A stretch of 64,000 nucleotides of DNA from Haliclystus octoradiatus (lineage: Eukaryota > Cnidaria > Staurozoa > Stauromedusae > Haliclystidae): assembly GCA_916610825.1 (NCBI GenBank), contig OU744453.1, positions 18,688,241 through 18,752,240 on the forward strand, read 5' to 3'. Shown here piece by piece: positions 7,388 to 59,452 of the stretch. The position numbers and the translations under genes were made by a program. Positions within the stretch are counted from its first letter, which is position 1; every line of letters begins with the position of its first letter. The notes below the pieces were generated by a model. It saw nothing but the letters and a program-made list of their open reading frames with translations. It did not search any database and was not told the origin of the DNA.

Positions 7388-10300
7388 ATGGAAGAGCAAA
7401 GCGCAGGAGGACAGTCGCAAATATTAAACTCACAGAATACACAACATCAAGGAGCAGTCGGAGAAGACAATCCATCTCAAGTAGTAGTAAGCGGTGGACC
7501 TACATTAATGGTGATGCAACAAAACCAAGTAGGTCTCACGCTACAGAACCAACAACAACATTCTAATGTTAGTCAAGCATCCCTTGGATCTCATACAATG
7601 ATTGTTCCTGGTTCAAACACGTCTGGTGCAACAGCAGATCATGGAAATTCATCTGGATTATATACGTCAGCAACTGGTTTGCCTACTGAGTATGTGATAC
7701 CTGGTGGTAACTTGGTTCACGTTCCTGTTGTATCGCAGCAAGACCATGGTGATGGTAGGTAGTTTATAGGCAACTCCAGTACCCTTGATGATCATGTCAG
7801 ACCTTGTTTGATGATGCAAATGAATAAGAAGAGTTTGAAGAAAACTAACAATTTTGTCAACCTGTGATTTCATGTTTGGATTGGCTTAACACATCACTAT
7901 CTTCTTACGGCGTGACATGATTTTGCAACAGCAAAGTTCCATCTTGTGAGGTCGCATCTGATTGGCCTTTCCAATAGATGCCTTAATAACATCAATCTCT
8001 TAATTTTCACATTCTGAGTCCCCTATATTTTCAAACCCTGAACATCATCTTTAAATTTTCAAACATCCCCGCAGCACATTCAATGTTTGTCTTTATTAAG
8101 AAGTTATAACTTTGACAATCTTTTGCAGATGTTGATGACAGCATGCATGATATGGATGATGACGATAGGCGGCATCTTGATGAACTGCGAGAACAGGTAA
8201 ATATAAAATGTGGTTTGCACGGATTATTAAAGATGATTGTTTTCATTATTCAATTTGCGTTATTATTTCTAGGATCGCTTTTTGCCGATAGCAAATGTTG
8301 CAAGAATAATGAAGAAAGCAATACCACGTAGCGGCAAAGTAAGCCACTCAGTTATCTCTAAATGTAATGATGTAATTGTATGTCTGGTGTCGGCTCAATC
8401 TAGAAATACATAATTGATAGTTAATCTGCTTATTAGTTGTGCATATATATATTTCGCTCGATAGAAGCATATAAAATTAATACATTTGTCCGCCTATTGT
8501 TTAGTTGATTACGTCATATTAAGTCACACCTCTCCTAAGCAGACACCTGTATTATTCAGACAAAATTCTTCAGTCTGTTGGGTGTCCGGTTACAACAGGT
8601 TTGACTGTAAATTATATCCCACCCTCCAAGCACCTTTGCCTTTTGAATTTATTTGGCAAACATTCAACATGTATAGTACATTGCTTTATGGTAATCTTTG
8701 TTTGTTTTTGTTTACATAGATCGCTAAAGATGCAAAAGAATGTGTGCAAGAGTGTGTTTCTGAGTTCATCAGTTTCATAACTAGCGAGTATCTTTTTCTT
8801 CGTTTAATGTATTGCACTCATCAATTGACAGCACAGTCCCAAACCCTGGGAAACAACATTTTTAACACAGGCTTAACATTGTACAGGTACCCTGAATCTT
8901 GCCATGATGTTGGCATTAACTTGAAAGAAGATAATAAAGAGGGGCCAGAAAATAACAGTTCTTAAATTTTGGTTAAAGTTTGGATAATACCTATAGGTCT
9001 ACAGTCAAACCTTTATAACGGTCACCTCTGTAAAGCTCCCGCCTGTCTATAGTGGTCACTCTTGCAATGTCTAAATTAATATTTTCTATTGAATCAAACC
9101 TGTAAATTTTTGGTCACCTGTTTATTGTGGTCAATTTATCTACCTATCTTAGCTTGACTATTATATACAGGTTTCACTGTATAATGGTTACAGGAAAACG
9201 TCTTTACAAGGCATTTATTCAGTTCTTCAATCATTATCACAATCACCACTATTGGTCTAAAAACAGTCATCATAAACCTCGAAAAAACAACTTTGATGCA
9301 ATAGCAATGTCATGTTTAGGGTTAGGCTTTTAACAATATCAGTCAATCACAAGAAATATCGAATGGTATCTGTTCTTCTCTCATTTGGTAAATTAAAGAT
9401 TGAAACAAAAAGCCATTTGAACCGGTCCAATTTCACATTTTTTAATATTTGTTGAAGCTAAACATGTTGTACAGCTTTTACACTGTTTCCAATAACATTC
9501 TGATAGTCAAAACTAGGTACTACACAGATTGTAACTTTTCTTCGCATGTGTTTACTTCTTGATAAGGAAGATATTTTAAACGTTAATTTGGACCAGGAAA
9601 AAATTTATCCTAAGCAAGAATATATCGGGAGCTTTCTGTGATTTTAAATTATTATTATTATTTTAGATGATCTTAAAATTACTTTTATTTATTTAAAATG
9701 TACTACTTTGACTTTGTGTAACCATAGTGGTTAAATTCCGTTAACTTGAGAAATGCAGAGCAAGTGAACGATGTCACCAGGAAAAACGAAAAACAATAAA
9801 TGGCGAAGACATTCTTTATGCAATGTCAACGCTTGGTTTTGATAATTATGTTGAACCGTTAAAACTTTATTTGACTAAATATCGTGAGGTATGTAATAGA
9901 TTAAGGTTATCATTTTCAATTTGATCTCAACCAGTATCAGAATACATACTTATGAATTTGAAGATTAAATCATATTTTCTTTATTCTATACTTTTTCAGT
10001 CCAAATAATTAAAAGAAACATATATGAATATTATCGGGCAAAGTGTTTAACCTTCTGCAACTGTCAATATTTTTATTAGGGGCCATTTTTACAGTTGATG
10101 TCAATCAATTTTTGACCCTCTTGTCTTAATGGGAGTTTTGAACATTTAATACAGGCTGTCAACTTTCACACAACCCCCCTCCCTAATCATTGGTTGACAT
10201 CAATTAGGAACACTCCCTTAGATAAATGTTTGAGTAATTTTAATGACAAAAAAATGTAAAATTAGAAAAAATCAGATCAGATATTTTTCTAATGATTTCA

Positions 10301-11652
10301 GCTTTATATTCAGAGTTTTTTCTTTGCCTTCTGAATTTTCCTATTCTTCAGCAAAATGATTTGCCTGACTTTTCCGAAACCTTGCATGTGAATTATGGTT
10401 TTGGCAGTCTTAAGACAATCGTTTGATGTCTTTTACATACCAAGCTTTCAAATTGCTAGTTCCAAATTATGGGATTTCTACAAATATTGAAAGGCATTTG
10501 CTCCAGTTTAGTCTTTGATTGACAAAAATAGCGTTTGACTTAGATTTGATTTTTCTCTGATCCGTAGTGCGATTATGATCTATCGCAAATATTTTATGCA
10601 TATTCTTATACATACATTTTTTGACAGTCATTGAAAGGTGAAAAACAGCCTGGTACATCACTTGATGGAACCAGGCAAGAGGGCGACCAATCAATTGATG
10701 GTAACGCAGAACAACAAATGCAATTCCAAGTTGCAGGTAAAAATATCAAACTCAAAATCTGGTCAATTATATTTGGCCACTTTAATCACCTCCCTTGACA
10801 TTGAATATATATTTGATGGTTTACAAGTGTAAAAATTGTCACTCATCTAAGATTGATGCATAGATGCTACTCAGAAAGGAATACATGTACACATGCGGTA
10901 TTAGTAATATCAAGATAATATTATAATAAGAACTTTAGAGTTTTAAAAAGGTCATAATATCATCTTACTTTTATGTAAATAATCTAAACTATCAAAGATA
11001 AACATATTGTTGAGGATGTTATTGACAACGGCCTGAGAACCTGTTTTTATATTTGATATGACATACTTTTTGAAATTCCATAGGGGTGCTGTTATAGATA
11101 GTTTCTACTGTATGTTCATGAACAGTCAATGAAAATTGGGCCATTTAGCGTTCATGAACTCCTGGACTGTTTGAAGGGGTGCTTTAAGAATCTTCTCGGT
11201 AAATGATGAATATTTTATCTCTAAATTGCTGTTTTCTTATTGCCTAGGTGGTCTACATCCTAGTATGGTTGTTCCTGATGTACCTCCCACGTCGACAATG
11301 TACACGTATCAACCACCAGTAAGATTATTCATGAAATAAATAAGCTTAGTGGTGATTCTCTTGGTTAGATGGCAGGCAGATTATACAAAGAAAATGTCTG
11401 TCTACGTGACAAACTAGGGTGCTTTACCAAGGGAATGAAAAAAGTAAATTCCAATATCATTTCTGTCAGACATCCGATTTAATCCAACAGAAAAATATCA
11501 GTCCCATCCGATACGACCGCTGAAAGTCAATCTGATTGATCGGATTCGGGCCAGATTCACTAATTACACACTGCGAAGTTGATTAATGATTTATTTCCTT
11601 ATTGTTACAGCTACAGCCACAAGCAATTCATTCTGGCAATTGGCAAGCGTGA
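7388..11652 (+). CDS. NFYB: Nuclear transcription factor Y subunit beta (NF-YB/CBF-A)
   Basis: Eight coding exons: 7388-7754, 8129-8196, 8273-8338, 8720-8787, 9759-9888, 10628-10736, 11248-11318, 11611-11652; all GT-AG, phases agree, 306 residues. NF-YB dimerises with NF-YC through a histone fold, recruits NF-YA and binds CCAAT boxes in the nucleus. The histone fold spans residues ~146-233: [17 protein letters not shown] (exon 3), [20 protein letters not shown] (exon 4), [20 protein letters not shown] and [17 protein letters not shown] (exon 5). These blocks are nearly identical to the family. The N terminus (1-145) is Gln/Ser/Gly-rich and longer than in vertebrate NF-YB, followed by an acidic stretch with MHDMDDDD. 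The C terminus is Gln-rich. The ATG lies 10 nt after an acceptor at 7376-7377, so a 5' non-coding exon, or trans-splicing, is implied. Confidence 0.96.
9002..9179. mobile_element. pogo-like MITE, inverted copy
   Basis: Begins CAGTCAAACC after TA and ends GGTTTCACTG before TA. Same family as 1267-1439 in opposite orientation, in NF-YB intron 4. Nearly full length (178 bp). Confidence 0.85.
11105..11187. mobile_element. GTTCATGAAC-type small MITE
   Basis: Contains TGTTCATGAACAGTCAATG, then GGGCCATTTAGCGTTCATGA, and ends GACTGTTTGAAGGGGTG, an inverted version of the CCCCT.. terminus of the 3.3-kb element at 12150. In NF-YB intron 6. Confidence 0.5.
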
Positions 11653-11857
11653 TATTAATCTATAATCATCTTTCTTTGGGTGTTAAAGAAGCACTCGTGT
11701 CCGCTTCTTTTGAAATAGAAGAAAAAGTTCTTTCGTAAACTGTGTAGAATTAACATTAATTACTAATCAAAACTATATATAAGACAATGTACACATAAAA
11801 AACCCGTCTTATTTGAGTTTAGTTCAAGTTAAATAATTAATACAGGATTTATGATCC

Positions 11858-11863
11858 ATTAAA
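11858..11863 (+). promoter_or_regulatory. Possible NF-YB polyadenylation signal
   Basis: ATTAAA 206 bp after the stop codon, followed by an A-run. A weak variant signal; a longer 3' UTR is equally possible. Confidence 0.3.
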
Positions 11864-12165
11864 AAAAAATGTAAATATCTTAGCACCAAAAATTAATTTA
11901 TAACTTTGAAACAAAGCATGCTTTTATACAATTTTGTTTTCTCTGTATTCAGACATGATCAAAAGATATTATAGAGTATACAGCCTATTTATAAGAAATG
12001 TTCTCTAATAGTTGCCTGTCTCTCAAAATTAGCCTATGAAAAGTGCGCTATTTTACAATTACATTTTAAAACAAAGTGAGTGAAACTTTCATTAATACCC
12101 AAATATCGAAAAGCTGTCAATACACTCAACGTGACACAAATACTCATGGCATCCCCTAGGAAAAA

Positions 12166-12545
12166 GTTCATGAACGTTCATGAACTTTCATGAACGTTCA
12201 TGAACTAGTTCATCAACGTTAAATGGCACAGAGTTCATGAACGTTCATGAACTCAAGTTCATGAAAGTTCAACAAAGTTAATGAACTAGTTCATCAAAGT
12301 TCATGAACTAGTTCAGCAAAGTTCATGAATTAGTTCATCAAAGTTCATAAACTAGTTCATCAAAGTTCATGAACGTTCATGAACAAGTTCATCAAAGTCC
12401 ATGAAGCAGTTCATCAAAGTTCATGAAATCAGTTCATCAAAGTTCATGAACGTTCATGAACAAGTTCATCAAAGTTCATGAAGCAGTTCATCAAAGTTCA
12501 TGAAATCAGTCCATCAAAGTTCATCAAAGTTCATGAATGTTCATG
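12166..12545. repeat. Left array of GTTCATGAAC palindromes (heat-shock-element-like)
   Basis: From 12167 to 12204 there are eight contiguous pentamers alternating nTTCn and nGAAn with exact 2-bp spacing; degenerate repeats of AGTTCATCAAAGTTCATGAA follow. This is the published consensus for HSF binding; whether it is bound is unknown. Confidence 0.85.
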
Positions 12546-14829
12546 AACTGTATAGTAAATAACAGATTAAAACAAGAATGGGAAAAAGCAACTTTGAATG
12601 TTTGAACATTTAATTCACAAAAAATTGTAAAATATGATATAGTAAGAGTAAATGAATACATTCAAACAAATAAAATATATGATATAGAAATGTAGGAATT
12701 AGTATAGCTTGTTAAAATATCAAAGATTGTTTGAAGCCGATTGATACTTTAAATATGTCTAAAGTAAAATTAATTCTGCTCATTGAAGCCTAAAGCATAT
12801 CAACTTCTGAAATTGTGCTGTCCTTGAATGTCTTTTGCTTTGAACGGATTTTTCCAGTTATGGAGCATGATTTAACTTTCTATTCTGTGTACATATCCCT
12901 CTAAGTCTTCAAATCATAATGTGAAGTCTTACCTTTTAAATGTATAGTTGTATAAGTATCTTACTATATTAAGGGTAAATTGGTTCTCTGTTGGGATATT
13001 CTTTTCTTGCCATGATTCATTTCAAAACTTACTTTATCATGCAATGATATTTTGCACCTACTTTAGGAAGTGCTTTTAATAATAATGATAATTAGTATTA
13101 ATATCAACCTTTGGATTGTATATGTTCAAGAGCTTGAAGTTATGACATGTCCAGTGTTTGAATTGAAAATAGCAAGCAACACAAATAATTATGCATTGAA
13201 CTTCTTTATGTAGTTTTGTTGTGGGGGTTAATAAAAGTCTTGCAAAGCTTTGCATCTCTGATTTATCTTTTTTGTGTATAATTAAAAGGAAATATAAAAT
13301 CTGGCCTCAAATTCTTTGCATGATATTCAATGTATCCACCAACACCAGATATGAGCAACCAAACAGCCATGTGGGGAGTAGGCCTACTGTAGTAAATTCT
13401 GTTTGAGTTTTGAAAACCACAGTTTGATCTAATTAAGTATTCCAAAATCAAACTTTAGTTTCACCTGGAAATCATCTTTTCAATCCTGTTGAAGCCATAT
13501 ATTTTTATGTAAAACATTGTAGAATATCTATCCATCAGCTAAATTCTTCATATTACTGAATTAAACTCATTTTTTAAGTTTGCTATCTTTCTCTGGCTCA
13601 AGTAAACAAGCAGCAAAAGTAAGGAATGATATAAATTACTAACTGACTTCATAAGCCAGTTTTCTTTTGAATAACAATAGCTAGTACCCAGGTCCAAGCA
13701 CCTAGTCTACATATAGACAGCTTATCACCTTACTATCAGCATGAGATGACAGCATGAGCCCAGCATGAATTTATTAGCTTCTCACTTAGACACCCACTTA
13801 TCACTTCCTGTTTGTGAGATTTGTCATCAAATATTTCAAAACTTACTTTTTCACACATTGGCTATTGATGCTTCAGTTTGTTTGTTTTGATATTTTAGCT
13901 CGGGTTATCAATTTATTTAAATATACAGGATAATCAACACACAAGAAAGTTCTGCTCTCTATTGTGTGTATATTTAAAAATAAATTGAATTTTAATCAAT
14001 TAAACTATTTATTCCATTAAAATTTAGATAGCCTACACAGCATAGGATGTTTTAGGATATATTCAACACAATGTTAACATAATTAATAAAAGTACAATCA
14101 AACTAACGCATTAATGCATCAGACATGAAACAACAAACTTGAACAAGAACATTATCATATATGATGGATAAAACTCAGAAAAAAGTTAGCTGTAGATTTT
14201 ACAACTAATTAACTTATAGACATTGTAATTAATTAACTTAAGTACATACATTGTCTTGACAAATGAAGACACATATGTGTCTTAGAACTGTCTTCTCCTA
14301 AACAATCTATCAGAAAAAGGGGGTCCTCCGGGAACCTGGTTCATTGAAGGCCAGCACAAAATCAGTAGGTTTGCAAATATAAGATTTACTTTTCAACATT
14401 ATAATTCATAGGCTTCACATTCATTTTGTATACATATTTTGAAAACCCTAAAGGTGGAAAGTTTCCTATCTTATCCGGAATTTCTGATTCCAGCAATGCA
14501 ATCATTTTGTGACACCCTGCCCCTAAGGCATTGTCTATTTGTCATTAGTTGAGATCAATAATTTGCTGCTAGATTTTATTGACATTACTTATATACTGCG
14601 CTGATCACTAAGGCAATAAGCTCCAAAATTGTTGACATGGTACCAGAAATGCTGCCAATTAGACCTACATTGATTTATGTTTTCCTGCTAAAATAGCGCT
14701 TACAATTGTGTGTTAATACAGTTTCACACTTACTGTATCTAGTTGAGCTTGATTATGTATTTCGATCAGAATGTTTTTATCATGAAGTTTCATAAGCTAG
14801 GATTTCTGTTTCATTAATTCAGAACTAAT

Positions 14830-15400
14830 GTCCATGAACTTCTACTACTGATAGGGTTTACGAAAAATGACTACAAAGAATGAACATTGATTGAAGTTGA
14901 TGAACGTTCATGAACTTGGAACATAGTTCATGGACTTTGAACACTGGTTAATAATCTTAGAATGTGGTTGTTGAATGATGACTTTTAGTTCATCAAAGTT
15001 CATGAACGTTCATGAACTCTGTGGGTCCATGAACTATTTGTTTACAAACTGCTATGATTAGTTCATGAACATTCATGAACTTGAATAAAGGTTCAAGAAT
15101 GTTCATGAACTTTCATGAACTTTGATGAATTTGGAAAACTAGTTCATGAACGTTCATGAACTTTTATGAACTTGAACAACTAGTTCATAAACTTTGAGTG
15201 TAGTTCATGAATGATGACTTTGAGTTCATCAAAGTTCATGAACGTTCATGAACTGTAAGAGTTAATGAACCATATTTGTATGAACTATTCCTTATACTTC
15301 ATGAACTGTTCATCTAAGTTCATGAACTGTTCATCAAAGTTCATGAACGTTCATAAAAGTTCATGAACGTTCATGAACTTTTATGAACTTTCATGAACTT
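14830..15400. repeat. Right array of GTTCATGAAC palindromes
   Basis: Repeated GTTCATGAACGTTCATGAAC at about 14997, 15141, 15233 and 15355, separated by diverged copies. Forms the inverted counterpart of the left array. Confidence 0.85.
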
Positions 15401-15570
15401 GTTTCGCAGGGGATGATTCGCCTATTCGCATAAACAAGAACATTGCTTCAAATCAGGATTCAATGATGACGGCTCGTGATTTTCTGAAACCTTTTGATTG
15501 AGTGCATTGTAGCAACCCGAGTGTTTATATAAACCATATTGCATAGAAAGTGTTTAATATTGGAGGGATA

Positions 15571-15710
15571 CATTGACCACTATACGCAGGCAGCTTTCAT
15601 ATACAGGGTTTATTCAATAGAAAATACTGCTTTGGAGGCTGCATGAGTGACCACTATAGACAGGTGGTTGCCGCATAAAGGTGACCCTTATAACAGGTAT
15701 GAATGCACCT
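15571..15710. mobile_element. pogo-like MITE, diverged copy
   Basis: TGACCACTATACGCAGGCAG, then GACCACTATAGACAGGTGG and GGTGACCCTTATAACAGGTA match the internal blocks of the 176-bp family. Ends are eroded. Confidence 0.6.
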
Positions 15711-17994
15711 ATACAGTCCATGTTTGATTTGTACTTAATAAGATTCGGAGAACTGCTGATTGTTCATGAACTATGGATGAGATGTTATAAATGATGATGA
15801 TAAATAAGTTAAAATTATATTATGAATCATGAAAAATTGCAACAAAGGTGTAAATTCAGAAGGAAGTTTTGGAAAATCAAACAATTGGAGTTTTTCTCAT
15901 ATTGAAAGATGTGTGCGATCATACATGCATAGGAAAAGCTTTGTTGAAAAGATATTTTTATTTTATAAATCAAGTATTAAACACTTTCTTGTGCAATATG
16001 TATTATATAAACACTTGGGTTGCTATGAGGCATTCCAAAAGGATTCAGGAGATCACTCGCTGCGACGGCTAATGATTTTTCTACGCCTTCCTTGCACAGA
16101 AAGTGTTTAATATTTGTATAATATGATAGAAACTGTAGTACTTAAAAAGAATAAAATACTGTACTTATGAACGTCTAAAATTTAATAAAGAAGAATCGGT
16201 TGTCATAAAGTTATAGCAGCGTCCATTTGGTATGGTACAATATTAAAGTATAATTTAAAATAGAAAACATTGTCTATTCAATCTATCCTATTTTTTCTAA
16301 ATTCTGACTAAGATTATCTATTTCGTTTACATCAGTTTCGTAATTGTTAACAATCCTATTTAATACTTCCAGTTTTTCATTCCTAGAATTCAAAATAAAA
16401 TAAACTATTGAATGACTTTGCAGGCTGAGTAAAAATAATTTATTTAAAGTGGCAAAACTGACCGATGGGCTCTACACGCTTAAGTCACGTACGTCTTTAC
16501 CATGTGGTTGTTGTTTGTATTGTTTTTGTGCCTGAAACCATGCTGAAACTTGAAATTTGAAGCCATGACTGACATTGATCGTTGAATTAAGTTAACCTTT
16601 AATAATTCAAAATTAAGGCTCGTAGTGACTGCCAGTCAATGTTGCCCATTTGAGCAATAACATGCGGCAGTGTGAATGCCTTGGCCTAGTTGGTGTTTCT
16701 ATAGCTCTCGTTCACATATATGTAGCCTACATTTGTGTTCATTATAATGGGTTATTGAGTATGGTAGTGTTGATGCATTATACCTTGATAATCATTCAGA
16801 TAATGTGCTTTATTGAGAATTGTAATTGGTAAATTTGTTACTATCCGGCTAACAAATGAAAACATTCTGTTATTCGGGAATTAAAGGCCTTCAGTCGACA
16901 AGCATGGTTCGTCAAGTTTTGATTCTGATTCTGAAAGATGTGTTCCCTTTCATACTGTTTGCGTCGCAAAGCTGATATTGATTATTGCTATTATTAATCA
17001 ATAAAGCTTTGTCTGCTGCATTTCGAAAGCTGTAGGTCTGACTATTTCATTTCATGATTGGAATTGAATGGTTTCTACTAGTTACTGAAGAGAGGTTCCT
17101 AAGGATTATTAGTTTCATTTTTCTGAGATTGCACAATGTGGATTTCAAACCTAAGAAAACAAATAACTGCTTCTATATCAACAATATTTTTTTCTCTTGT
17201 ATTTTTACAAATCTCAAGCGGAAAAATTGATTTTATCCATCTGTTTGAACGAAATTTATGTGAAAAAAATGATAAAAAATTTCTGTTTTAATGATGTTGA
17301 TTTCTCGTTTCTAATGACAATTTTTGACAAACTTCCCTTTCGCGTTATTTAAACGCTGATTCTTGATTCCTGTTTTATAGGAAAACCTCTTTCCCCTCCC
17401 CCTACCAAATAATGATGGCTGTTACATGCAACAACTAAGTAACTTTGAATGATCCTTCCAGACAATGATCATAGCTTGGCCAACATAAATAATGTTTTTA
17501 AAGAATCTTCCCTACACCTACCATTCTTGCTCTGTTTTCTCAAGTTTCTGTTTCGTTACCATGGTATCACTTTCAATGACCATTTTATCCCAGTCATAAG
17601 GTAATAACGTATGCATTGCCAACATCAAACCAGCACAGGGAGCACTGCAGAAATAAAGTATACGCATGTTGCTCATCTTTTAGGAGAATTAAAGTATTGG
17701 CTTGGAGATCATTGGCAATTGTTATTGCAGCCCGGTGTACGCTATTTCATCATAACATCCCTTTTGCATCCATATTTTGCAAACTTTACTACAACCTCAA
17801 AGTTGAGAAAAGTAGCTTCATTCATTTTTCTCTTTCAACTTTTTCAAGCTTCTCCTTTGCCACAATAAGGATATACTCATTCAAAAACATTAACTTACGA
17901 GTAACAAAGTCAAGTAAATGTTTATAAAAGTCATGCTGGTTATTATACAAAGCGATTGGAGTACACATTTTCTATGAGCTGTTGCTTTATGACG

Positions 17995-21059: not shown

Positions 21060-21555
21060 TCTGGAGAAAGTGATTTACAGACAGATGGACTTTATATACA
21101 GGTTGAATTCAATAAAAATATGAATATTGCTATTTTAAACATTTCTAAAGTGAAAAATATAAACAGATGGTTGCTGTATAGAGGTGGCTGTTATAAAAGG
21201 TCTGACTGTAACTGGAATGTGTACATATACACAATCAAAAAATTATGTAACATCTATGAAGTGTAGATACAATGACCATATAGACAGGTGACCTTTATAT
21301 ACAGGTTGTTTCAGTAGAATAATTATTTTCATATTATATAGGGTTTATCTAGAGTCAAGTAATTTTAGATAAAGTGAAACCTGTATATAACAGCCAGCTA
21401 CGAGAGGTAGATAATTTGACCACTATACGCAGGTGGCTTTTATATACAGGATTTATTAAATAGAAAATTTTATTTTACATATTCCAAGAGTGACTACTAT
21501 AAACAGGTGGCCGCTGTATTGAAGTGACCGTTATACTAGGTTTGACTATATTAGT
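21060..21555. mobile_element. Cluster of two or three pogo-like MITEs
   Basis: A copy at about 21375-21550 runs from GTGAAACCTGTATATAACAG to ACTAGGTTTGACTATA; further copies at 21065-21210 and 21270-21330 are partial. Confidence 0.65.
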
Positions 21556-22522: not shown

Positions 22523-23184
22523 GGAGGATTAGCTCAGATGGTAGAGCAACCGAACTTCAGATCGGATCATATCTGATCGACTGTGGTTCAAATCTCCCTA
22601 AGGTCCAGTCTGCAAATAATGGCAATCTCGACGAGATCTCGGGAGTGGCAGTGCCGAAAAAAGTTAGGGACGGGGGCGGCAACTGATCAAATTTGATCAA
22701 ATTTGACTTCAGGGGCTGCAAAATTCATCATTTCAGCAAAAAATACGAAGAATATGACAAAATAATCATTTTTAACTGCCGATTTTCGATGAAAACTGCA
22801 GCTCCAGGGGCGGCAATTACGAGAAAAATTTTTATCTCGGGGGCGCAGCTGCCATGCTTTGCAGACCGGCCAAAGGACAAGGTCAACTCAGCCTTGACTT
22901 TATCTGAAACATCAAATAAGTACCATCTGAGGAAGGAAGATGGAATAGTCCAGAGGGAATTGCATTGTGAGTAGCTGCGGCGCATCGTTGCGCATTGACA
23001 ATCAAGACCTATCTGCCATGAAATCTGTTGAAATTGATCTGCATTCTGCAGTGTCGCGGGCTCGCAGCTGAGATCAACAAAGAGCATTTAAAATCATTGC
23101 TCTCAGCGAAAAAAGCCCCTCATCTAGAAATAGAGGAGTGGTACGGGGGCCTTCGGTAGGGAGACACCGTCTACATTACTTACT
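22523..23184 (+). mobile_element. tRNA-derived SINE, interrupted by an insertion
   Basis: Head 22523-22605 resembles a tRNA, with a Pol III A box (TAGCTCAGATGG) and B box (GGTTCAAATC). The body (from 22879) reads TCAACTCAGCCTTGAC ... TTGCATTGTGAGTAGCTGCG and ends near GACACCGTCTACATTACTT. Copies at 59084-59452 (minus, uninterrupted) and 36200-36431 (5' two thirds) show the head normally joins the body directly. Confidence 0.85.
22606..22876. mobile_element. ~270-bp insertion nested in the SINE
   Basis: Interrupts the SINE between AAGGTC and AAGGTCAACTC. Its ends, CAGTCTGCAAA and TTTGCAGACCG, are inverted, and AAGGTC flanks both sides, suggesting a DNA transposon with a target-site duplication. 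Internally GC-richer, with GGGGGCGGCAACTG and GGGGCGGCAATTACG. Confidence 0.7.
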
Positions 23185-27436: not shown

Positions 27437-40730
<13,294 letters not shown>

Positions 40731-43397: not shown

Positions 43398-46257
43398 CTC
43401 CAACTATTATTACTATTTAAGCTTTGCTATTTATCTATTGCATCTTGAGCACCATGTCCTATCAGTAACCAATCATTAACTAGTATATGTATAATATAAT
43501 AAACAAGAGGCTATCACTTATTACTAAATTATTATTCAAATAAAATATCTGTGAAATATGCACTTTCCACCCGAACATTGAGTGCAGTTTATGAAAACAG
43601 GCCATTTAAAGTTCATGAAATCCTTATTTAAAGTTCATGAACTTTATGCATTGTTGACGATTCTTGAATTGTAATGACCTGTTCATGAAATTATGCATAC
43701 AATAATAAGCCATTTATGAAACAAGGCTCCCTCGTATTAATTAGACAGGGACATTCAAAGTCGCTATCTTTTTACAAGTCAAAATTTGATTTAAAACCAA
43801 CCCGGTAAAATCAGCTCCCGGACCCCGGTGCTGGATATCCGGGTTCGATTTCTCGTCGGTGTACAGAATGTATTTCTGTATCTAATGTATTATGTTAACA
43901 ATTATGTATATAAGTGATAAACTACATTCTTTTTCCGATTTTCTTCGGTCGTAAGCTAGTTTCATATGTGAGTTTCACCTCAAAACTCATTATTCTTTGA
44001 ATACAGATCACAGTAAGAATAATATCCCTCTATGCTTTGTAAAGATCTTAACGTTGTCCTTTAAAAATACCTCTGCAACAAGTTTCTAATCTAAAAATGT
44101 CTTTGAACCACGGGGATTTAAATTTAAACAAAGCTTTTTACACCACATCTTATAAAACATCATTCAAGCAGATATCAATTTATAAATAATAAATAACATT
44201 TGTATACAGTTGCGTACCATGTCGACTAGAGTTATTGTACAGCTGGACTTTCACTTTCGTTATAGGGTTGTAGGGTTGAGTGAGCATATAATAGCAGTTG
44301 AATGAGCCGGATTCCGGATTTCGAGCTAAATCAAAATGTAGTTCCCGAACACGGGAATAAGATCGAGAATGGACAGTTTGAAGAAAGCCGAAAACAAAAA
44401 TTTTATTAAAAAAAGTCACGGGAAACCGTGTTCCAAATTAAAAAAAGGGAATTTTTGTATTATTTTTCAAGTCTTAATTTAATTCAAGACGAATAATGAC
44501 ATCGAGCTTTGCAATGAATAATTGGTAATTTAGCACATAAATAATCATGAAGCCTCAAAGTTTTCAATCATTTTTTGCGAATTTTAGATTTATTAATATC
44601 TTTGCAAACGGGCGAAGTCTCAGAATGCAGTCCTGGTATAAATTTCATAACAAAAAAAATGCAAAGTCTAAAATTGTTTGGATATTTCTACGTAGATATT
44701 GCATTGGTTACTATTTTCAGTGTAAGTTAATTTATTTTATGCCTTTCTATTTTGATTAATCTTGTGTTGATAAATTAATCCATTTTCGGACTTTTACAGG
44801 GGTTTGTCTGAAAGTTTTTGGAGCCGAAGGTTGGAGTTCGGGTCTATTTTTCTAACATTTTCGAAGTCGGACTCCGAGTCAAATTTTTCGGATTAGGATT
44901 CTGGAAATTCTGACTCTGTAGACTTTTGATATCTCATAATTTTGCAAACTATTTTTTTCAATTTTCAAGTCCATTATAAATTATAATCAATTATTAGTAT
45001 TTCACTCATGTATACTGGACAAGTGAACATATTCTATTAATTCTATCGATTTATGTTGCCTTTACAATCTGTCAAAATATCAATGCTATATTTTCAGCTT
45101 GAAATCGTTGACTGAAGAAGACTCCCACATGGAAATAGATTTTAAATTTACAAAAAGATTCAAACAGCGGATGTTTTCCATTCTGTCTTGTACCTTTGCA
45201 GACCCGCGAGAAATCTCATCAAAATAAGATAAATCCTCATTATGCTATTATAACTTGATCTTAGATTTCAAAAAAAAAACTTGCATAACAAAGAATATAA
45301 TAAAAATGAATAGATGTTATGTTTCTTTGATTTGTTTTTACGCCCTAATACACATTAAACAGTCTTCGGTGGTCGCATTACGTCAATAAGTGAATTGAAA
45401 GCATATATCAGCGTGAGAAAGCAGCAAACCCGAAATTAATCTTGAATAGTATAACCCCGCAATCGGTTCCAGAGTCCTGACGTTGGTCTACACAAAGTTA
45501 AGGTCTACACAATCAAATTGAGCCAAAACACATCATATTTATCAATTATTCAGTCAGTCTCTAGCATGCATGTTGACTGTCAGTCTGTCATTTAGTCAGT
45601 CTGTCATTTAGTCAGTCTTCTATAGGTTGACCCATATCGATAGAGAAACATAAGAAATTTCCCTCTATCTATCCATTTCTCTATGGGACCTTCTCCAATA
45701 AAAAGTATAAGTTACCATACAAAAGTTTTCAAACTATACGAAGACTGATAGCTTTTTCCCACAATTGTGAACTCCGGTGTGAACTATAAAGGATTATGTA
45801 TGTATGTATATGACAGGCAAATGAACAAAGAAGGATATTTTTTAAGTGTATCCTCGCATAACGATATGAAACATATGGAACACAGAACATCCTCACGTAT
45901 GGGACATAAGGATAAATTCAGTATAATTATCAATTTTTCAAATTACAAAATCTACAAAAAATATAAACACATCAACAAAATGTTGTCATATATGCGTGGT
46001 TTAATCAAGTGATGTCATAGTTTTATATCCTATCGTCAGTTCTCAGTGTTCGCTGTTTTCATTTCAATAACGAACGCCAACCATATTGAATTGTTGACAA
46101 TGATAATGAAACAAAAAGTTACAACACCACAGTGGTAGGTCTTCACCCTTCACAGCCCTCAATACAATTTCTAGAATAATATATATATATGTATATATAA
46201 TGTTTTGATTTTACAGTTTAGAGCATAGATGAATCTATCCGTCGACGGTTCAACATC

Positions 46258-49200
46258 ATGTGGGGTGGCAATTTATTCTTGGTCAGCTGTATTGCTTTTA
46301 ATATAGTGACTGCTGATATTTATATACATTCACCGAGAGGTTCGAACAATCGTTTAAATGAACAGCGAGCTAAAAGACAGAATGCAAACAGAGCATTTGA
46401 TTCACAGGCAAGTAATAATATACAATTTATGTATTAAATGTTTGATTAGTTATAGCATAAGTAAATATCGGAGATCTAACGTTTTTGTTGATAAGAAGCT
46501 TTAAATCTATCTATAGATTTTTGTAATAAATGAGGAATTAATAATGTAATAAGTTTAGAATAGACACAAAGATGAGGCAGAAGCATTAAAAGACGGATAG
46601 GCTTTTGCCTCATCTTTGTGTCTATTCTATATTAATATAATTATGCTCTGTCTTAACAAACCATGAGCATGTCGCGTATGTGTTCACCTCATATTATATT
46701 ATATTATTATAATGTAAAAAATTTATAAATTTGCAACGTTTCAGTGAGTGTATGTGATTATGTGGGTACTAAATTTTTTTAAGTTTATAAGCTGTGGATT
46801 ATGACGTACTTTAAAAATTGTTTTATCAACCATATAAGAATATCGGTATAAAGAGCTTCTAGGTTGTCCAATAGTCCGACAATACCACCTCATACTATAC
46901 TACCGACTGTCTAATTAGTCTTGTCTAATTAGTCTTGTCTAATTAGTCTTGTCTAATTAGTCTAAACGCGCGTTAGATATATACTGTAATCATTGAGAGT
47001 TAAGGAATTAATTTTACTTAATGAAAAAGTCTAGCATTGCAATTTAATCATAATTGATTGATCAATTAATGCCAAAATGTATAACTAATGAGCAAAGAGA
47101 ATATGTAATGAGATAACTTTAAGGCATAAACGAACCTTCATAGAATATAATTATGTGTTGGTAATTAGAAAATGGTCAATAAAATGAAATTAAAAGTTGA
47201 ATTTCTTATTCATGGCGTGACACGGACTATGGTCGTGACAGACATATTGACTTTACTGATCGATCATAATACGCAGCGATGCGATGCATATGTAGTGTTC
47301 AAGTTCATAATTAATTGTGAATGAGATATGAGATTGAAAAGAATGCTACTGTCCTTGCATGAGCCCTCAGTAATCACATAGTCAATCACGATATCTAAAG
47401 TTAAGCTATGTATATGAATACAAACGAGGTTATACGAAAGCGAGGTAAATCAATATACTACACATCTCCATAAATCGTTCTTTTCATCTAGACTACTCCT
47501 AAACGATCCCAAACAATTATGCACTTAAAGATATTAAATTGACCCCAAGCGGTTAGAAAAGGGTACATGGGCGTGTCTTTCTACTGCGCACTTTTATTAG
47601 ATCGCTTAGGTTATAAAATAATTATATCTGCTCTTTATATAATCTTAGAACAACGACAGAGGCGGACACAATGTTGGAGATTTGACTGCAGAACCACATA
47701 CTGCAGAGACAGGTCAATATCGTATGGTAAGTATGGATATCCGATTAGTCAATACAATCCCATCCAATTCAAGCTCTTTTAAATCTATGGTGAAAATAGT
47801 ATAGGCGATGTACAAATGGTTTGTATTGGGTATGTATCGCGTCTGTTTCTCCGATATTCATGGTAAAAACGATTGATGCTACTAAGTGAAACGTGAATAC
47901 TATTTGGTCTGCCATATGAAAGCTCGCAGAGGGTAAACTTCCCCATGACAGGGGATTTGATTGTACTTACAACTTCTTCCAAGGAAATGTAAACTTCACA
48001 ATGTTAGTTTTTTTAAATAGAGACACAATTTGTTGATATTTTTTCTTTAATAATACATTATTAGTTCCCTGTTCTTCTTCAAAAACTGGCAAACGTTTTA
48101 CCGTCAAATATGACACATAAACCAACCAATCAGCTTACAAGGTTTTGGCGGGATGTTTTATAATACAGTTATCCTTAATATACCCAAGCAGTGCACGCCT
48201 GGTATAGCAGACACCTATATACAGTGGTTACCTCTGCTGCCTATAATACAAAATTCTAGCAATATCCAAATAATACGGACATGTTTCACTGCTATTGTGT
48301 GATATTTTTCAATATCCAAATAATACGGACATGTTTCACTGCTATTGTGTGATATTTTTCAATATCCAAATAATACGGACATGTTTCACTGCTATTGTGT
48401 GATATTTTTCAATATCTTTCAAACATACTTTCAGGATGATTCTCATGTGAAAAGTAATAACCCATCATTACTTGATTCCAATTATAATTTCTCACCAGCA
48501 GAAGATCTAAAAATAGAATTTAAAAGCATTTCATTTATCAAAACTGTTTTTGAAGTTATAGTCAAACGTGCTATATAACAACTACATCTATATAGCGATC
48601 ACATATCTATAGTGGCCACTTCAGTATTATACAAAATGCCTCATTTTATTGAAAAAACACTGTATAGAAAGGTCACCTGTCTACAGCAGCCACTATAGGA
48701 ATATACCATAAGCCTCATTTTATTGAATAAACACTGTATAGAAAGGTCACGTGTCTACAGCAGCCACTCTAGGAATATACCATAAGCCTCATTTTATTGA
48801 ATAAACACTGTATAGAAAGGTCACCTGTCTACAGCAGCCACTCTAGGAATATACCATAAGCCTCATTTTATTGAATAAACACTGTATAGAAAGGTCACCT
48901 GTCTACAGCAGCCACTCTAGGAATATACCATAAACCTCATTTTATTGAATAAACACTGTATAGAAAGGTCACCTGTCTACAGCAGCCACTCTAGGAATAT
49001 ACCAATAGCTTTATTCTATTGAATAAACACTGTATATAAACGTCAACTGTATTTAGCTGTCATTATATCTACATTTTTGTAGCTGGCCTTACGTACATGT
49101 TTCATAGCAATTGTAATATTTTGCATTATGTTTTAGACATATTTTCAAAGTGGTTCAAATGTGAAGAGCAACCCATCAACAGGTCAAAGTATTATGCATA

Positions 49201-52200
49201 TTGAATGGACTAATCAGCATGGCTGTGGTGGGAATGAAGAAACAGATCCTGGTAAAGCAAATTGTAACGTTGTCATTCAGTACATGTGTATGGCTGCAAA
49301 TGAAGATGAGCCAGCAGAATCGGATCGATTACGTAATGGATTTTCAACTGAAACTCAGGATTTCACACAAACAGATGCACTTGATAGTGAAACACAGGAA
49401 GAAGCTAAAGCAAGAAAAGGTGTAGAAGACCCACAGGGTGGTATTCGTAGTGATCGTGTATTACAAGAGAGTTGGGAATCGTATGATAGATGTTCAAGTC
49501 GTGATAGGAATAAAGGTACAGTAAAACATGTCTATAACGGCTAGTTATGAGATTAGACTCGCAAGGGTGGCGCTGGGATTTCTCCGACAATAGGGCTAAC
49601 TCCTCAACAAGGTCGTTATTTATAGAAAATACTTTCAAATCTGGACGATTTAATTTTTATGGATCGTTCATGAACTGTTCATGAAGTTCATGAACACTTC
49701 ATGAACCACAAATAATTTTTTCACAAGGGTGAAACTAGATTTTCGCCACAATGGCTGGTTAACTAATTCGTATTTTGAAGTGTGTGCACAATTTATGGCT
49801 AAATGCTCTCCAAAACGCCACTCCCACAATCACAAAGTAATTGATGGTTATCACACACTATGGAACAATTTTATACATCTTTATAAACAATAGTTTGTAA
49901 TCTAAATGATATGTGGTGATCCTGTTTATACGACCTCTGAGATTTAAAGAAAATGATCGCAATATTATGCAGGTGACCTTTATATACAGGGAAGATCATT
50001 ATAGACAGGTAGCTCTGTATAGATGTGACTTATATAACAGGTTTGATTGTATATCATAGTCAGATGAGATAATTGCCGATGGATAATGTTGATTTCATTT
50101 CATTAATGATACATTTATGTACATATTTCAGGACTATTTCTTGCTGACCAGCGTATTAGTAGAAGAAAAACTAGCGCAATATATACTCGTCAAAATAGAA
50201 ACGGTAACAGACGTGGTTACGAATGCCCTGAAGAACGCGACTATTATCCATATTGGCATCCAACTGATTGGAAAGATATTGCAGTATTCGCCGATAAAAA
50301 AGAACATTGTGAAACATACCAGAAAGAGAGTTTCAATGTAAAACCTAGAGGTAAGAGACACCTACTCCTATAACATCATTACTCCCTTAACATTTTCCAC
50401 CCATTCAAAGCTCTATCAACAGTTCATGAATTATTTGATTGTTCATTAACTCAAAGCATTCTACGCATGCATGCTGCAAAACGTGTCCATGGACCTCACA
50501 AACTGATCATGAATGACTTGTGAATAGTCTGTGAACTTGGTAAACCTTTTTTTAAGATGTTAATGTACATCCTGTAAACAGTTTATGAACAGTTGAATCA
50601 CATGTGGTTTATTAATCCATTTTGCATTACAGTGCGTTAATTGTATTGTGTTTCAGTGAAACCTGTATCTAACAGCCACTTGAGATATCTATAGATTGAC
50701 CATTATGGAGAGGTGGTCAGGGTCTAACAACTAGGACTCTAGGAATCCTACATTCTAGAATGCTAGAGAAAATTCAGAAGCAAATTGTTGATATTTTTAT
50801 GATTTATATATAAAACTGCAACAAAATCATTCAGAAGAAAATGTTGAAATGTTGCAGTATTCCAGAAGGCTGAACCTCAATTTATCCGTCCCTCAATTTC
50901 CCTATTGACTAAAATTCCGTCTTTGACTAAATAAAGATGGTTGCTATACAGAGGTGGTCGCTGAATAGAGTAAGTTGCTAATTCCGTTTGACTTTCTTAC
51001 AATCTTTAGGTGAATGCATGATCAAATATGCTGATAGTGATTTTTATAGTCATGCTTCGTCACACAACAACCCTAAAGATTGCGAGTCAAACGATGGCAA
51101 ATGGATTGATTTTACAAATTTCTTGGAATTGGATAAGACCCATAAAACAGAAGATGAATGCCTTGCTGCCAACGATAACAATGCTGGTATTAAATATGGC
51201 TGGGGTATACCGTTGCGTCCAACAGAACTGAAGATGATTAGTCCTGGCATAAAAGAATTAAGTAAAACATGTTTAGTTTTATTAGATGAGCCTCATTGTG
51301 AAGAAGCACCACGTACAAGAGTCAATCACCTTGGTAACACAAAATCAGGAAACCCAATACGTTATTCATGGACTATTCCTTATTTTCCAAGTAAAGATTC
51401 ACAAAATTGCTTATTACGAGTCAGGTAATTGATATTTCCTTTTTGTGTAAAAAAATGATACTGTGAAATGCAGCTAGCCACGATTCACCTTTAAGGGGTT
51501 ATATAACGTATTGAACATTATTCATGAAAACGTTATTGCAAAATAAAAAGGTGCAATGGTGGTTGAATTTAAACGTTATATAGATTTACTATCTATTCTA
51601 TACCTATAAATGCGAACGTCTGGATGCGTGTTGTCAGTCTGTTCTCAAGTAAGATACTTGAATTCAATTCCAAAATACATTGCTGTTTTCCAGTCATGCC
51701 CCTGCAAACAGTTCAGGAATTCATGAACAGTTAAATGGCCTCAAATTTTAACGCGGGCGAACCATTGCTAGTTTGCTATAAATAATACATTTGTTCTCTC
51801 CCTGTCTAGAAATCACTTTGAATCTAAAACATTGAAGAAACTAATAGTATCGGCAGGAGACAATTAACTTACAGCTATCAAATCTATAAAAAGAAGTTAT
51901 TATCCACCCCTCAAGTTTAGTCCCTATTGAAATAGTTCATGAACATTAAATGGCATAATTTTGATAAGCTGTTAATGAGATGTTTGTGAAAAAGTCCATG
52001 GGAAATTTGCAAATAAAGGTTCATGGACTATTCATGAAAATTTTCTTCAGGTTCATGAATTATACATAAGCTGTTTATAGAAGTAACATTGCAAAGGCTT
52101 CACTTATGAAATATTTTTCACTTCTCTACGTTCATGAACTCGTTAACTTCTTTTTCAAGGTTTCAAGGGGCTATACAGTGAAACCTGTATATAACAGCCA

Positions 52201-59083: not shown

Positions 59084-59452
59084 TAAAGTAATGTAGACGG
59101 TGTCGCCCTACCGAAGGCACCCGTACCATTCCCCTATTTCTAGTGGAGTGGCTCTTTTCGCTAAGAGCAATGATTTCAAACGCTCTTTGTTGATCTCAGC
59201 CGCGACACTGCAGATCAATTTCAACAGATTTCATGGCAGATAGGTCTTGATTGTCAATGCGCAACAATGCGCCGCAGCTACTCACAATGCAATTCCCTCT
59301 GGACCATTCCATCCGCCATCCTCAGATGGTACTCATTTGATGTTTCAGATAAAGTCAAGGCTGAGTTGACCTTGGGGGGATTTGAACCACGGTCGATCAG
59401 ATATGATCCGATCTGAAGTTCGGTTGCTCTGCCATCTGAGCTAATCCTCCTT
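59084..59452 (-). mobile_element. tRNA-derived SINE, near full-length
   Basis: Minus-strand copy: A box TAGCTCAGATGG, B box GGTTCAAATC, uninterrupted head-body junction, and a tail ending near CCGTCTACATTAC. CTCTGTAACTT occurs just outside both ends (about 59070 and 59472), a possible target duplication. Confidence 0.85.

What the first reader, a model, noticed from the sequence alone, without database searches (positions are those of the whole stretch)
12150..15415. Transposon arrays that spell perfect heat-shock elements
Seen: the subterminal arrays alternate TTC and GAA at exact 2-bp spacing; 12167-12204 alone gives eight contiguous nTTCn/nGAAn pentamers, and the right array repeats this several times. 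Known: HSF trimers bind alternating nGAAn pentamers, three or more units. Inference: an abundant mobile family may spread strong HSF sites, making nearby genes or the element itself heat-responsive. The palindrome may instead be a transposase-binding site and the HSF match a coincidence.
Basis: partly seen in the sequence, partly recalled or inferred. Interest (0 to 1): 0.78.

Follow-up and report, generated by a model that had tools for sequence, protein, structure and literature searches.

The report
Transposon-like element with palindrome arrays
A 3.3-kb transposon-like stretch in an animal-type genome carries two arrays of a short palindrome that match the loosest spelling of a heat-shock switch, but with an unfavourable base beside nearly every contact and without lasting spacing, so they look more like docking sites for the element's own machinery than like heat-shock switches.

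Summary
The arrays are real: 15 of the window's 16 runs of three or more alternating TTC/GAA units lie in 12150-15415, the longest (8 units) at 12167-12204. The "exact 2-bp spacing" is half true. TTC-to-GAA gaps are 2 bp in 37 of 40 adjacent pairs because the unit is the palindrome TTCATGAA; GAA-to-TTC gaps are 2 bp in 18 of 41. T precedes GAA in 61 of 62 phased units, a base that a structural paper, from a model, calls seemingly intolerable for HSF. AGAAnnTTCTAGAA occurs 0 times. Palindromes that do not abut keep 5-bp phase no more than chance (3 of 20) but lie near whole helical turns (15 of 20). None of seven dispersed relatives holds a run of three units. The two ends match each other and recur at two relatives. 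Best reading: an old non-autonomous DNA transposon whose subterminal palindromes bound its transposase or an accessory dimer. Transposons spreading HSF sites are already known from Caenorhabditis Helitrons.

The parts
12150..15415 (.). Transposon-like element, 3,266 bp, 31.5% G+C, no coding capacity recognised
   Evidence: Ends match in inverted orientation; arrays at both ends; longest stop-to-stop frame inside is 76 aa; 10 of the 11 frames of 45 aa or more scanned, no Pfam match above cut-off
12150..12174 (+). Left terminal inverted repeat, CATCCCCTAGGAAAAAGTTCATGAA
   Evidence: Read; against the right end 14 columns outside the array, 12 identical; 0.0054 of 5000 letter shuffles reach the score; 2 edits from the right-end 14-mer
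15390..15415 (-). Right terminal inverted repeat, reading CATCCCCTGCGAAACAAGTTCATGAA on the minus strand
   Evidence: Read; also 2 edits away at 29057+ and 51708+, where 0.37 hits per window are expected
12166..12548 (.). Left subterminal array of GTTCATGAAC palindromes, including a 77-bp unit repeated 3.3 times (12288-12537)
   Evidence: Tandem Repeats Finder rows; half-site spacing
12167..12204 (.). Eight contiguous alternating TTC/GAA units (longest HSE-like run)
   Evidence: a chain this long arises in 53% of shuffles of the left array's junctions
12209..12226 (+). Family core TTCATCAACGTTAAATGG, shared with dispersed copies
   Evidence: 1 mismatch to TTCATGAACGTTAAATGG
14896..15400 (.). 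Right subterminal array of the same palindromes, in mixed orientation and less regular
   Evidence: inverted pairs within it
12549..14895 (.). A+T-rich interior without similarity (E up to 1e-3) elsewhere in the window
   Evidence: blastn of the interior against the window, self-hits set aside
29046..29112 (+). Dispersed relative with the end motif and the core (core at 29079)
   Evidence: 18-mer core exact; end motif 2 edits
51697..51745 (+). Dispersed relative with the end motif and the core (palindrome at 51720)
   Evidence: end motif 2 edits; core with one inserted base
11100..11179 (-). Dispersed relative with the core (at 11158-) and a weaker end motif
   Evidence: core 1 mismatch; end 22-mer 5 edits
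31847..31907 (+). Dispersed relative, core only
   Evidence: core 1 mismatch; no significant end match
51936..51953 (+). Dispersed relative, core only
   Evidence: core 1 mismatch
43602..43619 (-). Dispersed relative, core only
   Evidence: core 1 mismatch
49667..49705 (.). Cluster of four TTCATGAA palindromes spaced 11, 9 and 11 bp, out of HSE phase

Best explanation
12150-15415 is an old, decayed, non-autonomous DNA transposon with short terminal inverted repeats (CATCCCCT..GAAA..AAGTTCATGAA) and two subterminal arrays of the palindrome GTTCATGAAC. The palindrome was probably a binding site for a dimeric protein, the element's transposase or an accessory protein encoded by an autonomous relative, and the arrays grew by tandem duplication, giving many sites on about the same face of the helix. 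Because GTTCATGAAC placed head to tail spells TTC-n2-GAA-n2-TTC, the array matches the loose HSF consensus without having been selected for it. Shown: arrays, matching ends, dispersed relatives sharing core and ends, the unfavourable flanking base. Inferred: mobility, the binding protein, its dimeric nature.
For: Outer ends match each other (p 0.0054 by shuffling), and the right-end 14-mer recurs within 2 edits at exactly three other places: the left end, 29057 and 51708 (0.37 expected). The last two lie beside copies of the core TTCATGAACGTTAAATGG, which has 6 outside copies at 2 mismatches or fewer against 0 in 60 simulations. TTCATGAA occurs 26 times outside the element against 3.9 expected (maximum 11 of 200 simulations). 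What is kept is the palindrome: its centre is AT in 36 of 37 TTCnnGAA inside, whereas the G of GAA is kept in only 20 of 34 left-array units. Non-abutting palindromes are near whole helical turns in 15 of 20 spacings (chance 0.32) but in 5-bp phase in 3 of 20 (chance 0.2). Known precedents: the Galileo THAP domain binds several sites in long internally repetitive TIRs (PMC3688188); subterminal stem-loop motifs in soybean CACTA elements and TNPA binding to Spm/En subterminal repeats (PMC2613891).
Against: No target-site duplication: the only candidate in a scan of both ends was a 7-mer with one mismatch that does not sit at the matched ends. No transposase or remnant found (10 of 11 frames). 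A single arrayed copy; no relative outside the window (searches found none, but those collections hold viral and prokaryotic DNA). Spacings near whole turns may only reflect tandem duplication of 10-, 21/22- and 77-bp units, so the 20 spacings are not independent (9 of 13 distinct lengths). End match to the 11158- copy and the 31847 copy is not significant by shuffling.
Confidence: 0.58

Rival explanations
1. Working HSF sites: the arrays are bound by HSF trimers on heat shock and make the element or neighbouring genes heat-responsive.
For: Loose consensus nGAAnnTTCnnGAAn met; 15 runs of 3 or more units. A 29-bp composite TTCATCAAAGTTCATGAACGTTCATGAAC, with six pentamer slots in phase (one of them CAA), has 4 exact copies, two in each array, and 11 hits at 2 mismatches or fewer over both strands. 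8 gapped triples occur in the element against 2 outside, and HSFs of several species bind HSEs with 5-bp gaps (PMC3315474, passages). Repetitive GAA arrays can recruit HSF1, as human satellite III does (start of abstract PMC3704536). Transposons carrying HSEs are real in Caenorhabditis (PMC6927752).
Against: T precedes GAA in 61 of 62 phased units; HSF consensus is AGAAN NTTCT AGAAN, and T there 'seems to be intolerable' (PMC8379338, section 11; from an artificial model, not a binding assay). TTC-to-GAA dinucleotide is never pyrimidine-purine in the element, against 11 such places outside (where 22 counts both strands). G, the most conserved HSE base, is kept in 20 of 34 left units. 18 of 41 GAA->TTC gaps are 2 bp. 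0 of 7 dispersed relatives has a run of 3.
Confidence: 0.07
2. Plain minisatellites: two A+T-rich arrays that grew from a dispersed palindromic repeat by slippage and unequal exchange, with no protein-binding role; the matching ends are a remnant of an insertion but the arrays do nothing.
For: Tandem structure, including a 77-bp unit at 91% match; the longest HSE-like chain is no longer than shuffled junctions give; only one arrayed copy seen.
Against: Two arrays of the same palindrome sit just inside two matching ends, sharing a 29-bp composite; the same palindrome is enriched in dispersed copies without arrays.
Confidence: 0.24
3. Sites for another host transcription factor, for example a nuclear receptor on AGTTCA half-sites in an inverted repeat without spacer.
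For: AGTTCATGAACT resembles a nuclear-receptor inverted repeat (recalled, not from a call); palindromes are dispersed through the window.
Against: Only 2 of 36 palindromes in the element have the flanks RGKTCA-TGAMCY on both sides; half-site pattern recalled.
Confidence: 0.05

Closest known systems
Galileo (P superfamily) and Foldback-like elements with internally repetitive TIRs (PMC3688188, abstract and passages)
   Same: Repeats inside the ends; multiple transposase-binding sites located within such repeats
   Different: Galileo has long TIRs and a THAP transposase; here the inverted ends outside the arrays are 14 columns, the arrays are 0.4-0.5 kb of a 10-bp palindrome, and no transposase or target-site duplication was found
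CACTA elements En/Spm and soybean Tgmt* (PMC2613891, passages)
   Same: Short TIR followed by asymmetric subterminal arrays of direct and inverted motifs able to form stem-loops; TNPA binds the Spm/En subterminal repeats
   Different: Ends are CATCC, not CACTA; no 3-bp duplication; no Tnp2 transposase
Helitron-borne HSEs of Caenorhabditis (PMC6927752, abstract and passages)
   Same: A mobile element containing many nGAAnnTTCnnGAAn matches
   Different: There HSF-1 occupancy and heat induction were measured; here none is, the flanking base is unfavourable, and the ends are not Helitron-like
Human satellite III as an HSF1-bound repeat (PMC3704536, PMC7889540, start of abstracts in a search listing)
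   Same: Repetitive DNA with GAA units
   Different: Pericentric satellite with demonstrated HSF1 binding; no comparable evidence here

Membership tests
Heat-shock element (HSE) | Three or more alternating nGAAn pentamers with 2-bp gaps | tested here: met
   15 runs in the element
Heat-shock element (HSE) | Preferred bases: A before GAA, pyrimidine-purine between TTC and GAA | tested here: not met
   T before GAA in 61 of 62; AT centre in 36 of 37, AA in 1; preference from PMC3315474 and PMC8379338
Heat-shock element (HSE) | HSF occupancy or heat response | not testable with these tools
   No chromatin or expression data; host unidentified; no genome held
Mobile family that spreads HSEs | Multi-unit HSE kept in dispersed copies | tested here: not met
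   0 of 7 relatives in the window (6 at 2 mismatches or fewer plus 51720) overlaps a run of 3; the one outside run is at 39284. Copies elsewhere in the genome could not be examined
TIR DNA transposon, non-autonomous | Terminal inverted repeats shared with other copies | tested here: met
   Ends match; recur at 29057 and 51708 within 2 edits
TIR DNA transposon, non-autonomous | Target-site duplication | tested here: not met
   Scan of 12120-12174 against 15395-15439
TIR DNA transposon, non-autonomous | Related transposase source | not testable with these tools
   Host genome not held
CACTA (En/Spm) | Ends beginning CACTA and a 3-bp duplication | tested here: not met
   Ends CATCC; flanks TGG and ATT
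Galileo / P superfamily | THAP-domain transposase | tested here: not met
   10 of 11 frames of 45 aa or more in the element, no THAP match; a non-autonomous copy would lack it anyway
Helitron | 5' TC and 3' CTRR ends (recalled) | tested here: not met
   Both ends read CATCCCCT inward, GGGGATG outward

The most novel reading that the evidence does not exclude
A DNA transposon whose transposase-binding palindrome converged on an HSF-readable array, so that avidity of dozens of suboptimal units lets HSF and transposase compete for the same ends and couples mobility to heat stress.
Probability: 0.06. Interest if true: 0.65.

Novelty: new member of a known kind. Interest (0 to 1): 0.22.

Why it matters
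It is a caution for motif scans: a 10-bp palindrome repeated head to tail satisfies the loose HSE pattern many times over while carrying the base that HSF structures disfavour at nearly every unit. If the element is a transposon, its palindrome arrays would be a further example of multi-site end recognition. If HSF did bind, it would extend the transposon-HSE link beyond Caenorhabditis Helitrons.

Tried and rejected
Own-genome search: no genome is held for the window. Pattern scans for relatives: TTCATGAACGTTCATGAAC in viral contigs gave 12 loci, 10 of which hold just 2 palindromes within one 4-unit run; L008 (8 palindromes) and L009 (6-unit run) are the exceptions, and the three printed (L005, L008, L009) look like phage DNA without the element's ends or core by eye. 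The family core gave 0 loci; the array composite gave 0 in viral and 0 in genome contigs. None of these collections is of animals.

An automatic alignment of nine presumed ends misregistered on the palindromes and was discarded. A fuzzy search for the right end reported first acceptable, not best, matches and was capped at 8; it missed even the element's own exact copy, and was replaced by a full edit-distance scan. Pairwise tests of the dispersed copies include the core by which they were chosen; outside the core, left flanks match at p 0.005 or better for the three pairs among 11158-, 29079+ and 51720+, and most other flank pairs do not. Nuclear-receptor reading: 2 of 36. Rfam: 0 families in 11000-16500. 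Pfam matches in the element: E 0.099 and 0.14, below cut-off, taken as chance. Literature: 'GTTCATGAAC' is in 19 papers by listing; judged from titles and abstract starts only, none appeared to concern this repeat; 'foldback + sea urchin' terms: 0 papers.

Full report
What is there. The window is 33.9% G+C and looks like animal DNA (an MgtE-type transporter exon; split exons; inference). No genome is held for it, so everything rests on this one window. At 12150-15415 two arrays of the palindrome GTTCATGAAC flank a 2.3-kb A+T-rich interior. The interior has no similarity elsewhere in the window at E up to 1e-3. The longest stop-to-stop frame within the element is 76 aa, and 10 of its 11 frames of 45 aa or more gave no Pfam match above cut-off.

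The observation. Fifteen of the 16 runs of three or more alternating TTC/GAA units in the window lie in the element, with 8 units at 12167-12204; simulations give 1.0 run of 3 and 0.06 of 4 per window. The right array's longest run is 6 units, not 8. Counting adjacent tokens, TTC->GAA is 2 bp apart in 37 of 40 cases and GAA->TTC in 18 of 41.

Is it an HSE? The loose consensus is met. The finer preferences are not. T precedes GAA in 61 of 62 phased units and A in 1. The consensus measured for Drosophila HSF is AGAAN NTTCT AGAAN (PMC3315474, passages). PMC8379338 (passages, section 11) states that the TTC-GAA dinucleotide is dominantly pyrimidine-purine and that thymine before GAA 'seems to be intolerable' on steric grounds; this comes from a model, not a binding assay. 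In the element the dinucleotide is AT in 36 of 37 cases and AA in 1. AGAAnnTTCTAGAA occurs 0 times in the element and 0 times outside. Guanine is described as the most conserved HSE base, yet in the left array it is kept in 20 of 34 units while the central A and T are kept in 34 and 32; in the right array the figures are 28, 35 and 34 of 36.

Is the phase kept? Of the 35 spacings between successive TTCATGAA in the element, 13 are exactly 10 bp and two exceed 60 bp. Of the other 20, 3 are multiples of 5 (chance 4), while 15 lie within 1.5 bp of a multiple of 10.5 (chance 0.32 each, nominal p 1e-4; 9 of 13 distinct lengths). The spacings are not independent, since the arrays grew by tandem duplication. 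Shuffling the left array's junctions gives a chain as long as the observed one in 53% of trials. Outside the element, 1 of 10 close spacings is a multiple of 5; the four-palindrome cluster at 49667 has spacings 11, 9, 11.

What speaks for HSF. A 29-bp composite with six pentamer slots in phase, one of them CAA, has two exact copies in each array, and 8 gapped triples of a kind that several HSFs accept occur in the element. Repetition could compensate for weak units, as in satellite III (search listing). I therefore keep the HSF reading at about 0.07.

The family. TTCATGAA occurs 26 times outside the element against 3.9 expected. The core TTCATGAACGTTAAATGG has 6 outside copies at 2 mismatches or fewer, against 0 in 60 simulations, and one copy in the element at 12209; a seventh relative at 51720 has one inserted base. 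No run of three units lies at any of the seven; the only outside run is at 39284. The element's outer ends align as CATCCCCT..GAAA (0.0054 of 5000 shuffles). An edit-distance scan for the right-end CATCCCCTGCGAAA finds, besides itself, three places within 2 edits, namely the left end, 29057 and 51708 (0.37 expected), the last two next to core copies; extended to 22 bases, the same three are within 4 edits against none in 30 simulations. By shuffling, the right end matches the 29079 and 51720 flanks (p 0.004 and 0.0025) but not the 11158- or 31847 flanks. No target-site duplication was found at the ends.

Mechanism. I take the element for a decayed non-autonomous DNA transposon whose subterminal palindromes bound a dimeric transposase or accessory protein. 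Shown: arrays, matching ends, shared core. Inferred: mobility and the binding protein. Precedents are the multiple THAP-domain sites in Galileo's repetitive ends (PMC3688188, passages) and subterminal motif arrays of CACTA elements (PMC2613891, passages). It fails the CACTA and Helitron end tests and has no transposase, so I file it under no named superfamily.

Novelty. Transposons that carry and spread HSEs are published for Caenorhabditis Helitrons (PMC6927752, abstract and passages). Subterminal binding arrays are a known design. The family itself was not found in the collections searched, which hold no animal genomes, so whether it is already catalogued cannot be told here. The HSE match is most likely a by-product of the palindrome.

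Noticed in passing
L008:23-146: Eight TTCATGAA palindromes in about 125 bp just upstream of an open frame that by eye resembles a phage portal gene (recalled, not searched), in a G+C-rich viral contig; looks like an unrelated operator- or partition-type array built on the same palindrome.
   Followed up: partly
15567-15713 with relatives at 1302-1436, 8992-9140, 21410-21545, 27684-27814, 29487-29635, 52214-52352: A second dispersed repeat (ACCACTATAGACAGGTGG... TATAACAGG), 75-82% alike over 131-150 bp at these places, with shorter hits elsewhere and tandem forms at 34295-34532 and 48638-49050.
   Followed up: no
15476-15559 and 15975-16056: Inverted pair, 82% alike, immediately right of the element; MITE-like.
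   Followed up: no
49667-53674: TTCATGAA palindromes recur between what look like successive exons of one gene (49137-49544, 50982-51428, 53004-53402, 54245-54640; gene model inferred from frames, resemblance to protein DD3-3 recalled, no Pfam match for the two frames scanned).
   Followed up: no
22878-23181, 36200-36431, 59086-59452: Another interspersed family, with inverted copies up to 96% alike over 166 bp.
   Followed up: no
30951-31094 and 48260-48416: Perfect tandem repeats (72 bp twice; 50 bp 3.1 times, 100% match), so recent duplications.
   Followed up: no
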